A DNA stretch of 64,000 bases from positions 124,001 through 188,000 of the forward strand of contig JACRCQ010000074.1 in the NCBI GenBank assembly GCA_016218915.1, in the 5' to 3' direction. Within the stretch, counting starts at the first letter, position 1; each line of letters begins with the position of its first letter. Under the pieces are notes generated by a model that did no database searches, had not been told where the DNA came from, and worked only from the letters and a program-made list of their open reading frames with translations. The translations under genes were made by a program, and so were the position numbers. This DNA is from Deltaproteobacteria bacterium (GTDB lineage Bacteria; Myxococcota_A; Polyangia; Polyangiales; Polyangiaceae). Shown here piece after piece: positions 13,346 through 19,202 of this stretch.

Positions 13346-15301
13346 GTGCCTCGCTACGAGTTGGACATCAAAGGCGTCAATCCGTCTACGAAGGCGACGC
13401 TGAGGTTTCCACGGCGGTTCTGGGAAGTCGTCCGGAAGGACCACGTGCTCGAGCTGTGCAAGGGGGGCGAAGAGGGCGGCTCTCGTCGATCGACTCGCAG
13501 CTTCGAGGATGCCGACGCAGCGGAGTGGCACCGCCTGAAGCTGGTCGCCCGATGGCTCAAGGCCGGCTACGTCGAGGTAGGTCCGTGTCGCGAGCTGGAA
13601 GAACCCCCGCGCCGCGTGAGCTCGGACCTGCTCATTGACGACTACTTCGAGGCTGCGGACGAGCGTTTGCTGGCAGAGGTGGAGGCATCCACCAGTGCGG
13701 GCAAGCTGGCAGGGCTCGCGGAGCGTTGGTACAAGGATCCTCGCGCGCCGATGCGTCGCATGCTCCTTGGCTACATCGATGAGCAGTGCGACCGCCCCAT
13801 GCACAAGGGTCTGGTCAAGCGTCTGCTGAAGCTGGCAGAGGCAGCGGCCGACGACGAAGCGATGGCGCACTTCCTGGTCGCGTTCGACCGGATGGCCCGC
13901 TGCTACCTCGCGCGCGTGGGTGTCACTTGGGATGCGGCGACGAGGCAGGCTCGGGACGTGGTCGGAATGCGTGCGGACCCGACCTTGCCGACATTTCTTC
14001 CCCGAGGTCGCACGAGCCCACGGTTCTCCTCGCGCACCCGATGGTACCTGGCGCGCAGGGCGTTTCGCTACTTTCGTCGGATGGGCCACGCCGACCCAGC
14101 CCGCTATCTGCGAGCCATGCGAATCGCGCTGCCTCTGTATCAGGAGGCACACCTGTGCAGCGCGGATCGGCTGCTGAGCGCCTGGGGTCTGATGCATGTG
14201 CTCTATGGCTACGCGCCGGAGCTGCGCAAGGGCGGTCTGCGCCTGCACGTGGCACCTGGGAGGTCTCTACGGGACCTCAAGCCGGCTCCATACTTCGCCG
14301 ATGCGTGGAAAGGGGCCTTTGACCCCTTGATGGAATTGGCCGTTGGGGCGCACAGCCGTACGGTCCGCGGGTGGTCGATTGAGATGTTGCGGACGACCGA
14401 GCGCGAGCGCCTCGACCAGATTCCGATCGCGGTTCTGCTGCCTCTGCTGTCATCGCCTCACGAGGAGGTGCTTCAGCTCGGAGCCGAGCTGCTCAAGCGT
14501 GCGCAAGGGGTCGAAAGTCTTCCGATCGAAGACTGGCTCAGGTTGCTGCGAATCGACCATGCAACGGTGTCACCCCTGATCTGCGAGGCGGTTGCCCAGC
14601 ATGTTCTGCCCTCGCGGCTCACGCTCGCCCAGTGCATCGAGCTTGGATGTTCGAGCATGGCTGCGGCAGCGGAGCTCGGGCTGGCATGGGCGAAGGACAA
14701 GCCTGTGCAATCCGAGCCGGACCTGCGGGCGGTGATGCGGCTGGCATCGGCACCTGTGCACTCGGTGCGCGAGCAAGGCACGAAGTGGGCGGTCGAGCTG
14801 ATCGCCACGCGATCGTATGCCGGCCCGGAGCACCTTCGCGACCTCATCGACTCGAAGTACGTCGACACGCGATCCCTGGCGCTCGCCTGTCTCGAGGCGA
14901 CTCCGCAGCTCCAGCAGAACCTGCCGCTGTGGTTTGCGATCGCCGAGTCGCCGTACGACGACGTGCGTGGGGTGCTGGTCCAGCATGAGCGCTCGTGGCA
15001 GAAGGAAGCCTGGCCCGAAACCCTTCGCTGGGTATGGTCCAGCGTCCTGGTTTCGATCCATCGCGGGGGGCGGCTCAAGCAGCGCGCCTTGAGGCAGATC
15101 TCTCAACGAGTCGTTGAGCACCCTGCAGAGGCCGAGTCTTTGCTGCCGGCCCTCGGCGTGTGTCTGCGCAGCGTGCGTGCACCCGAGAGAGTCGCCGCCC
15201 TGGCCACGCTCACTCGAGCGGCTGCGGAGTCGGATGCCATGCGTGCGGTCTTCGCCAAGCACCTCCCGGAGGTGGTCATCGGCACGCAGGTGTCGTCATG
15301 A
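13346..15301 (+). CDS. Helical-repeat (HEAT/ARM-like) protein, putative retron accessory
   Basis: GTG start MPRYELDIKGV; all-helical repeating segments (VLLPLLSSPHEEVLQLGAELLKRA, LRDLIDSKYVDTRSLALACLEAT, LPALGVCLRSVRAPERVAALATLTRAA). Stop overlaps next start (ATGA). Confidence 0.65.
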   Translation: MPRYELDIKGVNPSTKATLRFPRRFWEVVRKDHVLELCKGGEEGGSRRSTRSFEDADAAEWHRLKLVARWLKAGYVEVGPCRELEEPPRRVSSDLLIDDYFEAADERLLAEVEASTSAGKLAGLAERWYKDPRAPMRRMLLGYIDEQCDRPMHKGLVKRLLKLAEAAADDEAMAHFLVAFDRMARCYLARVGVTWDAATRQARDVVGMRADPTLPTFLPRGRTSPRFSSRTRWYLARRAFRYFRRMGHADPARYLRAMRIALPLYQEAHLCSADRLLSAWGLMHVLYGYAPELRKGGLRLHVAPGRSLRDLKPAPYFADAWKGAFDPLMELAVGAHSRTVRGWSIEMLRTTERERLDQIPIAVLLPLLSSPHEEVLQLGAELLKRAQGVESLPIEDWLRLLRIDHATVSPLICEAVAQHVLPSRLTLAQCIELGCSSMAAAAELGLAWAKDKPVQSEPDLRAVMRLASAPVHSVREQGTKWAVELIATRSYAGPEHLRDLIDSKYVDTRSLALACLEATPQLQQNLPLWFAIAESPYDDVRGVLVQHERSWQKEAWPETLRWVWSSVLVSIHRGGRLKQRALRQISQRVVEHPAEAESLLPALGVCLRSVRAPERVAALATLTRAAAESDAMRAVFAKHLPEVVIGTQVSS

Positions 15302-17585: not shown

Positions 17586-19202
17586 GTGGGCTTTTGGGAC
17601 AAGGTCAAAGCCTTCTTCGTCGGGCCACCCGCAGAGCCATCTGTCGCCGATGACGATAGCGAGAGCGGGTCCTCACCGCCCCCCGCGAAAGGTTCTCGGT
17701 CCTCCACCCAGGCGCCACGGGCGCCATCCCGTGCAGCCGAGTCCGCGCCCCCGCAATCCGCAGACAGTTTCGCAGCCGGGGAGATTCTCGGGCTGTCTGC
17801 CAAGGACATGCGGGCGCGTGCGCTGAAGATCAACCCGTACCACACCGCGTGGATCGGTCGCATCGACACCATCCCCCCGCAGAGTGACGAGCGCACGGCC
17901 TTGATCGATCGCGGGCTGATTCTGCGCGGATTGCTGTCCAAGAGCCAGATCGATGAGATCCATCGCGTCGGCGACATCTGGCTCCGCCATCATGACGCAG
18001 CCAAGCTCGCAGAAGCGGTGGCAGCTGCCAAAGCGCAGCGCGCTGTGGACGACATGCGCGCGCGGAAGGCCGAAGAAAAGCGACGAAAGAAGGAGGAAGC
18101 TGCCCAGCGAAAGGCGCTGCGCGCCGAGCAGGTCCAAAGGCGGCGCGAGGAAGACATCGTCTTTCTCGGACGAAACGTGTCGGCATCGCTCGCCGATCGC
18201 CGCTCGCACGTGGAGAAGCTCTCCGAGGCAGGGCTGCCTCTGCTGGCTACGCCGTCGGATGTGGCCAAGGCGCTGGGCATCACCATCCGCCAGCTGCGAT
18301 GGCTCTGCTTTCACGCGGAGGCGGCGCTCAAGAGCCACTACGTGTACTTCGAGATTCCAAAGCGAACCGGTGGCACACGCCTGCTCGCAGCACCCCATCG
18401 GCATCTCGCTCAGGCCCAGCGCTGGGTCCTCGACAACATCCTGCGACGGATTTCTCCTTCCGAACCCGCCCATGGATTCGTTGCGCAGCGGTCCACGGTC
18501 ACCGCCGCAGCGCCTCACGTCGGGATGGATGTGGTCGTGAATCTCGACCTCAAGGACTTCTTTCCGACCATCACCTTTCCTCGTGTGAGGGGGCTGTTCA
18601 AGTCGATGGGATACTCACCGGCTTCGGCCACCGTGCTTGCCCTGTTGTGCACGGAGTGTCCTCGGACGCCGGTGGACCACGAGGGTCTCCGGTACTGGGT
18701 GGCGGCAGGAGAGCGCGCCCTGCCGCAGGGCGCTTGCACCAGCCCGGCCATTTCGAATCTGGTGGGTCGCAAGCTCGATCGGCGGCTCGTGGGGATGTCG
18801 ACCAAGATGGGCTGGCACTACACGCGATACGCGGATGATCTCACCTTCAGCGCCCCAGCCGGGCATAGAGAAGCCATCGGCATCCTGCTCGCTCGAGTCC
18901 GTCACATCCTCCAGGAGGAAGGTTTCCAGCTCCATCCTCGCAAGCAGCACATCCAACGCGCCGCGCGCAGGCAGCAGGTCACCGGGATCGTGGTCAATCA
19001 CAAGCTCGCGGTGCCTCGGGAGGAGGTGCGACGGCTGCGTGCCATTCTTCACAATGCGCGAAGGACCGGGCTGGCCGCACAGAATCGCGACGACATCCCG
19101 CACTTCGAGTCATGGCTCCAGGGCAAGATCGCGTACGTCCAGATGGTGGACGCCGAGCTGGGAAGGAAGCTGGCGGAGCAGTACCGCGCGTTGACCGGGT
19201 AG
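17586..19202 (+). CDS. Retron-type reverse transcriptase with long N-terminal extension
   Basis: RT motifs VVNLDLKDFFPTI, ALPQGACTSPAISNLV, HYTRYADDLTFS, and the VTG motif QVTGIVVNHKLAVPREE. GTG at 17586 preferred because earlier starts lie inside the msd. Confidence 0.88.
   Translation: MGFWDKVKAFFVGPPAEPSVADDDSESGSSPPPAKGSRSSTQAPRAPSRAAESAPPQSADSFAAGEILGLSAKDMRARALKINPYHTAWIGRIDTIPPQSDERTALIDRGLILRGLLSKSQIDEIHRVGDIWLRHHDAAKLAEAVAAAKAQRAVDDMRARKAEEKRRKKEEAAQRKALRAEQVQRRREEDIVFLGRNVSASLADRRSHVEKLSEAGLPLLATPSDVAKALGITIRQLRWLCFHAEAALKSHYVYFEIPKRTGGTRLLAAPHRHLAQAQRWVLDNILRRISPSEPAHGFVAQRSTVTAAAPHVGMDVVVNLDLKDFFPTITFPRVRGLFKSMGYSPASATVLALLCTECPRTPVDHEGLRYWVAAGERALPQGACTSPAISNLVGRKLDRRLVGMSTKMGWHYTRYADDLTFSAPAGHREAIGILLARVRHILQEEGFQLHPRKQHIQRAARRQQVTGIVVNHKLAVPREEVRRLRAILHNARRTGLAAQNRDDIPHFESWLQGKIAYVQMVDAELGRKLAEQYRALTG

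What the first reader, a model, noticed from the sequence alone, without database searches (positions are those of the whole stretch)
13346..19202. Complete retron-like cassette: helical-repeat protein, WH-SWIM protein, msr/msd RNA, RT
Two ATGA-coupled accessory genes precede a ncRNA with canonical retron layout and an RT with YADD and VTG motifs and a long N-terminal extension, as in myxobacterial retrons. From memory, published retron classifications include a class (type XIII) pairing an RT with ARM/HEAT-like and WH-SWIM proteins; this locus appears to fit it. Inference: an anti-phage tripartite system with the helical-repeat and SWIM proteins as effector or regulator.
Basis: partly seen in the sequence, partly recalled or inferred. 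Interest (0 to 1): 0.85.

Follow-up and report, generated by a model that had tools for sequence, protein, structure and literature searches.

The report
Type XIII retron with nucleoid-protein tail
This is a complete bacterial retron of the little-studied type XIII, in which a reverse transcriptase and a structured RNA are coupled to two DNA-binding-type proteins, and one of these carries a tail related to the myxobacterial chromosome-organising protein CdbA.

Summary
Window 13346-19202 holds a helical-repeat gene, a SWIM gene (4-bp ATGA overlap), a retron-like ncRNA and an RT. The three proteins match PADLOC's HEAT-ARM_XIII, SWIM_XIII and RT_XIII models at E 1e-160 or below. Twenty-two relatives keep a nested a1/a2 plus msd structure with strong compensatory change (covariation 0.537; every slid control at most 0.131) and an invariant CGAGC priming site. 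Among 294 related genomes, 94 of 108 SWIM genes have this RT just downstream on the same strand. All 14 others but one have no such RT on the contig, mostly fragmented assemblies. It is therefore a type XIII retron of a Polyangiaceae-group myxobacterium.

The helical-repeat protein begins with a degenerate WGR-like domain. The SWIM protein ends in two tandem ribbon-helix-helix units of the CdbA family (TIGR04563), outside the PADLOC model and shared by a large subclade. A clamp (PCNA)-like fold in the SWIM protein rests on a predicted structure alone.

Anti-phage function, msDNA production and the mechanism remain inference: no catalytic effector domain was found, and the neighbours tested are not defence genes. 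Most likely the msDNA-RT complex restrains a DNA-acting HEAT-SWIM pair.

The parts
13346..15301 (+). WGR-like + HEAT/ARM-repeat accessory protein, 651 aa
   Evidence: PADLOC HEAT-ARM_XIII 1e-160; AlphaFold2 pLDDT 93.4, mostly helical solenoid; Foldseek best hits are HEAT/ARM solenoids such as PP2A scaffold and importin
13346..13597 (+). degenerate WGR-like N-terminal domain (residues 1-84) of the HEAT protein
   Evidence: profile hit to PDB 2ra8 at profile positions 5-78, E 0.031, whose segment is Pfam WGR 2.5e-19; Pfam WGR below cut-off in 2 of 63 relatives; some relatives named WGR protein by source; strands then helix then strand in the model
15298..17295 (+). SWIM accessory protein, 665 aa, ATGA overlap with the HEAT gene
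   Evidence: PADLOC SWIM_XIII 3.2e-170 over residues 1-544
16009..16407 (+). sliding-clamp-like region of the SWIM protein (residues about 238-370), from predicted structure only
   Evidence: Foldseek hits to PCNA, E 1.7e-7, prob 1.00, target TM 0.45-0.58 for most; sequence profiles give no firm support
16852..16905 (+). SWIM zinc-finger CxC...CxH motif (residues 519-536)
   Evidence: C519, C521, C534, H536 at 96-98% in 51 diverse SWIM proteins; Pfam SWIM in 41 of 56 relatives
16957..17289 (+). C-terminal tandem ribbon-helix-helix (residues 554-597 and 616-664), CdbA/TIGR04563 family
   Evidence: TIGR04563 9.8e-17, two stretches, just below the curated cut-off; profile hit to CdbA 6sbw 3.7e-6; repeat 1 against repeat 2 E 1.2e-13; strand-helix-helix twice in the model, mostly pLDDT 83-94
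17312..17560 (+). retron ncRNA (msr-msd)
   Evidence: z = -6.9; covariation in 22 relatives
17312..17346 (+). a1 arm of the closing helix
17347..17347 (+). predicted 2'-5' priming guanosine, in the invariant C-G-A-G-C (17344-17348)
   Evidence: invariant in 23 sequences; GAGC variant as reported for Mx65 (PMC6868368)
17356..17376 (+). msr stem-loop
   Evidence: 100% of cells paired in 21 distinct sequences
17400..17509 (+). msd hairpin: basal helix 17400-17410/17499-17509 and long stem 17419-17439/17471-17491
17524..17560 (+). a2 arm of the closing helix
17586..19202 (+). retron reverse transcriptase, 538 aa, with about 200-residue N-terminal extension
   Evidence: PADLOC RT_XIII 6.6e-161; Pfam RVT_1 1.7e-16
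18828..18839 (+). YADD catalytic motif

Best explanation
This is a type XIII retron. The RT reverse-transcribes part of the ncRNA, starting at G17347 and copying from about 17523 back to about 17400, to give a branched msDNA of roughly 115-130 nt. The RT-msDNA particle holds the co-encoded WGR/HEAT scaffold and SWIM/RHH protein in a resting complex on or near the nucleoid. When a phage changes the msDNA or its host partners, the HEAT-SWIM pair is released or switched on, acts on DNA and stops growth (abortive infection). Shown: gene order, family membership, conserved RNA structure, co-occurrence, domain content. Inferred: msDNA synthesis, complex formation, DNA as the target, phage trigger, cell-stop output.
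For: All three proteins match type XIII models. Compensatory changes in the ncRNA and an invariant priming motif. SWIM-RT coupling in 94 of 108 cases and HEAT next to SWIM in 29 of 29. RT closest to solved retron RTs, with YADD and VTG intact. Three modules linked to DNA binding in the accessories: WGR-like, SWIM, tandem CdbA-type RHH. Other retrons are reported to sequester their effector until a phage triggers it (PMC12548924).
Against: No known toxic catalytic domain in either accessory. The ten neighbouring genes scanned are not defence genes; the few PADLOC hits are to an amylase-type and an ABC-transporter gene. No relative in phage records and only two distant ones on plasmid records, unlike mobile defence cargo. 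Region X reads AAxxH rather than NAxxH.
Confidence: 0.55

Rival explanations
1. A type XIII retron whose main role is not phage defence but chromosome upkeep or stress response: the SWIM protein with its CdbA-type tail binds the nucleoid, and msDNA production regulates it.
For: CdbA is an essential nucleoid protein of Myxococcus xanthus (PMC7156744). The tail belongs to its family. The cassette type is common in myxobacterial chromosomes (99 of 294 genomes), absent from phage records, and lies among non-defence genes.
Against: Patchy distribution: the genus-mate G001 has a different type XIII cassette without this HEAT family, and G030 keeps the upstream dCache and ion-channel genes without the retron. 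Most type XIII cassettes lack the RHH tail. Retrons with a known role in the papers read act against phages.
Confidence: 0.25
2. The tail is a decoy or guard: the SWIM protein mimics the CdbA dimer so that a phage protein that disables the nucleoid protein strikes the retron instead and triggers it.
For: Two CdbA-family units in one chain make a fused dimer-like module. The own genome has exactly one further TIGR04563 protein, the presumed CdbA.
Against: No phage inhibitor of CdbA is known to me. The tail is absent from most type XIII SWIM proteins and was lost in one close relative, L074. It could simply bind DNA.
Confidence: 0.1
3. A decayed retron: intact reading frames but no longer making msDNA, because of the region X substitution.
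For: Residue N307 of NAxxH is A in the window although most relatives keep N.
Against: YADD, LPQG and VTG intact, frames open, ncRNA helix pairing intact. Two of 16 validated retron RTs, including Mx65, also lack that N (PMC6868368).
Confidence: 0.07

Closest known systems
Retron type XIII (RT_XIII + SWIM_XIII + HEAT-ARM_XIII or WGR_XIII; PADLOC-DB; classification of Mestre et al. 2020, paper not held)
   Same: All three protein models match strongly; same gene order in a wide range of bacteria
   Different: SWIM protein carries a tandem CdbA-type RHH tail outside the SWIM_XIII model; the HEAT protein is of the short type with a WGR-like head outside the HEAT-ARM_XIII model
Retron Mx65 (Retron-Mxa2) and Mx162
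   Same: Extended RT N-terminus; GAGC priming motif and substituted N in region X as reported for Mx65 (PMC6868368)
   Different: The Mx65 and Mx162 loci themselves could not be compared by sequence here
CdbA of Myxococcus xanthus (PDB 6sbw, TIGR04563)
   Same: The SWIM tail is two units of this RHH family
   Different: Two units fused in tandem in a large protein. Of the four c-di-GMP residues K8, S10, R27, R30, repeat 1 has D, T, K, V and repeat 2 has P, S, R, V, so c-di-GMP binding is not predicted
Sliding clamps (PCNA, DnaN)
   Same: Predicted fold of SWIM-protein residues about 238-370
   Different: No reliable sequence similarity; only part of a clamp; function unknown

Membership tests
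Retron | RT of the retron clade with YADD and VTG motifs | tested here: met
   YADD, VTG; retron models and structures far above group II intron ones. No tree with labelled RT classes was built
Retron | Region X NAxxH | tested here: inconclusive
   Window reads TAAAPH, most relatives TNARPH; 14 of 16 validated retron RTs have it, Ec48 and Mx65 do not
Retron | msr-msd RNA with a1/a2 helix and a priming G next to it | tested here: met
Retron | Production of msDNA with a 2'-5' branch | not testable with these tools
   needs nucleic acid extraction
Retron type XIII | RT of the XIII clade | tested here: met
   RT_XIII 534 bits, next model 353 bits
Retron type XIII | HEAT/ARM (or WGR) and SWIM accessory proteins adjacent | tested here: met
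Retron type XIII | Protection against phage | not testable with these tools
   no experiment; no type XIII test found in the papers held
TIGR04563 / CdbA family (SWIM tail) | TIGR04563 match | tested here: inconclusive
   E 9.8e-17 with two stretches, but 60.6 bits against a cut-off of 65; best structure hit is CdbA
TIGR04563 / CdbA family (SWIM tail) | c-di-GMP-binding residues K8, S10, R27, R30 | tested here: not met
   repeat 1 D/T/K/V, repeat 2 P/S/R/V; the tail is therefore claimed as CdbA-type RHH, not as a c-di-GMP receptor
Sliding clamp (SWIM protein middle) | sequence homology to clamps | tested here: not met
   profile comparison with 25 DnaN proteins, best P 0.0037, probability 9%; only the predicted fold matches

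The most novel reading that the evidence does not exclude
Type XIII retrons of this subclade are nucleoid-anchored: the SWIM protein uses a fused CdbA-like RHH pair and a clamp-like domain to sit on the chromosome or the replication machinery, senses phage takeover of the nucleoid, and with the WGR/HEAT protein stops replication, so the effector is a DNA-architecture protein rather than an enzyme.
Probability: 0.15. Interest if true: 0.75.

Novelty: new variant of a known kind. Interest (0 to 1): 0.42.

Why it matters
Type XIII appears to be among the least studied retron types: no functional test of it turned up in the papers held, and its effector is unknown. This locus gives an intact cassette with a defined RNA, a predicted msDNA size and priming base, and a first hint of what the accessory proteins may touch: DNA and the nucleoid, through WGR, SWIM and CdbA-type modules. 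Removing the RHH tail is a simple test of whether a retron can be tied to chromosome structure.

Tried and rejected
Group II intron, DGR or abortive-infection RT: rejected by model scores. Rfam families: none at gathering threshold, so the RNA rests on its own alignment. Enzymatic effector: no catalytic domain in Pfam or NCBIfam for either accessory; invariant residues of the SWIM protein look structural or basic. c-di-GMP binding by the RHH tail: the CdbA residues are not kept. Clamp homology by sequence: not supported. Defence island: the ten neighbouring genes scanned are unrelated. Mobile element: no phage match, two distant plasmid matches; the GC profile is flat across the cassette. Empty site: G030 keeps the upstream genes but shares no downstream flank, so no clean empty site. 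Promoter and terminator scan: nothing beyond chance. The papers on retron classification (Mestre 2020) and the retron census (Khan) are not held.

Full report
What is there. The helical-repeat gene runs 13346-15301 (GTG start), the SWIM gene 15298-17295 (ATGA overlap), and the RT gene 17586-19202 (GTG start), all on the + strand. Between SWIM and RT lies a 290-nt gap with a 31-nt inverted repeat (17312-17342/17530-17560) enclosing a second, 21-nt one (17419-17439/17471-17491). Folded as RNA the gap gives -153.5 kcal/mol against -114.6 +/- 5.6 for shuffles, none of 200 as good. No Rfam family matches at the gathering threshold.

Classification. PADLOC models give HEAT-ARM_XIII 1e-160, SWIM_XIII 3.2e-170 and RT_XIII 6.6e-161; the next RT model scores 353 bits against 534. 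By sequence the RT is nearest to solved retron RTs (Ec86, 1.9e-40) and distant from group II intron RTs (1.6e-5). It carries YADD, LPQG and VTG; region X reads TAAAPH where most relatives have TNARPH. Simon et al. (PMC6868368) report that two validated retron RTs, including Mx65, also lack that asparagine, and that myxobacterial retron RTs have extended N-termini, as here.

Co-occurrence. RT_XIII is found in 99 of 294 related genomes at E <= 1e-60. Searching the same genomes with the SWIM and HEAT proteins and comparing places: 94 of 108 SWIM genes have an RT on the same strand within 3.5 kb downstream, median gap 689 nt between aligned parts. Thirteen of the 14 exceptions have no RT match on that contig, most of them in fragmented assemblies. 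The last is Minicystis rosea (G039; its contig length equals that of CP016211.1), where about 8.4 kb separates an intact-looking ncRNA next to SWIM from the RT. All 29 HEAT genes of this family sit directly before SWIM. Named relatives reach Planctomycetota, Verrucomicrobiota, Cyanobacteria and Bacteroidota; in the more distant ones the helical-repeat protein is long, about 1000-1100 aa.

The RNA. The gap was extracted from 22 close relatives and aligned. Every one has the nested arms. RNAalifold gives 69 pairs, 49 with compensatory change. Counting 67 of these pairs on 21 distinct sequences: 91.8% of cells paired, covariation 0.537, against 0.080-0.131 when the 3' partner is slid by 1-3 columns; 0 of 500 shuffles reach it. 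The structure came from the same alignment, which favours the percentage of paired cells in that control, but not the 251 double changes to the same degree. C-G-A-G-C-C-C is invariant at the inner end of a1, matching the GAGC priming site reported for Mx65. From this the priming base is G17347 and the msDNA about 115-130 nt; this is inference.

HEAT protein. AlphaFold2 with 63 homologues gives pLDDT 93.4, and Foldseek finds HEAT/ARM solenoids. Residues 1-84 form strands, a helix and a strand; the profile hits PDB 2ra8 at profile positions 5-78 with E 0.031, and that segment of 2ra8 is Pfam WGR, 2.5e-19. Two of 63 relatives match Pfam WGR weakly, and some carry the source name 'predicted DNA-binding WGR domain protein'. 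About 50 of the 63 have an N-terminal segment of this size. I call it a degenerate WGR-like domain; the evidence is moderate. PADLOC holds a WGR_XIII model, so WGR in type XIII is not new.

SWIM protein. The PADLOC model ends at residue 544. Residues 554-597 and 616-664 are two strand-helix-helix units, mostly at pLDDT 83-94. Profiles of the two units align with E 1.2e-13. The tail matches TIGR04563 at 9.8e-17 in two stretches, 60.6 bits, just under the curated 65; CdbA itself scores 121 bits. The protein profile hits the CdbA structure 6sbw at 3.7e-6. The own genome has one full member, the presumed CdbA, and this tail, and TIGR04563 rings in none of 14 control genomes. CdbA is an essential nucleoid-organising protein that binds DNA or c-di-GMP (PMC7156744). 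Its c-di-GMP residues are not all kept here, so only DNA binding is a fair guess. The tail occurs in 48 of 56 of the aligned close homologues and in Labilithrix and Polyangium-group cassettes, but not in Planctomycetota, cyanobacteria or other distant ones. On a tree of the SWIM core it needs 5 changes against 18 when shuffled, compatible with one gain and several losses. G084 (same family) has the WGR-like head and the RHH tail together, as in the window.

Clamp-like fold. Foldseek of the SWIM model returned PCNA and related clamps for the 50 hits listed (E from 1.7e-7, target TM mostly 0.45-0.58, but large rmsd). Secondary structure 256-367 (b-a-b-b-b-b-a-b-b-b) agrees with one clamp domain, at pLDDT mostly 78-92. 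Profile comparison with DnaN gives nothing firm. This is a lead, not a finding.

Surroundings. Upstream are a STIG1-repeat protein, a dCache protein, a pentameric ligand-gated channel homologue and a DPBB protein; downstream a PA14 protein, a Cys-rich repeat protein and a heparinase-like protein. No defence gene was recognised among the ten scanned. The GC profile is flat. The genus-mate G001 has another type XIII cassette without this HEAT family, and G030 keeps the upstream genes at 68-75% identity without the retron. The cassette is therefore gained and lost, as defence genes often are, although it is not seen in phage records and only twice, distantly, on plasmid records.

Mechanism. Shown: parts, order, conservation. 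Inferred: msDNA synthesis, complex with the accessories, release or activation on phage infection, and a DNA- or nucleoid-directed growth stop. The last step is the weakest, because no enzyme domain is present; DNA-binding-type modules are what the anatomy offers.

Verdict. The CdbA-type tail is the part I have not seen described, within the limits of a library that lacks the classification paper.

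Noticed in passing
L048, L058, L060, L062, L065, L066, L068, L072, L079, L101, L102, L103, L108, L109: Many type XIII cassettes, including that of the genus-mate G001 (L108), have no gap between the SWIM and RT genes, so their ncRNA is not in the usual place or is missing; a simple inverted-repeat scan found no convincing copy there or downstream.
   Followed up: partly
L112 (Minicystis rosea, G039:C1:15277000-15293500): About 8.4 kb of other genes lies between the ncRNA (kept next to SWIM) and the RT, a natural split of a type XIII retron.
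   Followed up: partly
L117 (G280:C220), 7893-8891 +: One open frame joins the first half of a SWIM protein directly to the end of an RT, as if by an internal deletion.
   Followed up: no
L111 (own genome, G000:C21), 1611-3014 -: The genome's second RT is not a retron RT; best PADLOC models are an RT model, a Cas1-linked RT and UG17.
   Followed up: partly
window 9794-12195: A dCache sensor gene overlapping a pentameric ligand-gated ion channel homologue (Neur_chan_LBD 5e-14); the pair is kept in G030 and G116.
   Followed up: partly
window 6561-9734: A 1057-aa protein with 18 STIG1-like Cys-rich repeats.
   Followed up: no
window 17292-17301 and 17445-17454: The 10-mer CTGAGTCGAC occurs both just before the ncRNA and in the msd loop; possibly chance.
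   Followed up: no
L054, L070, L090, L096, L100 RT N-termini: Several related RTs carry an extra N-terminal domain of about 70-80 residues that the window RT lacks.
   Followed up: no
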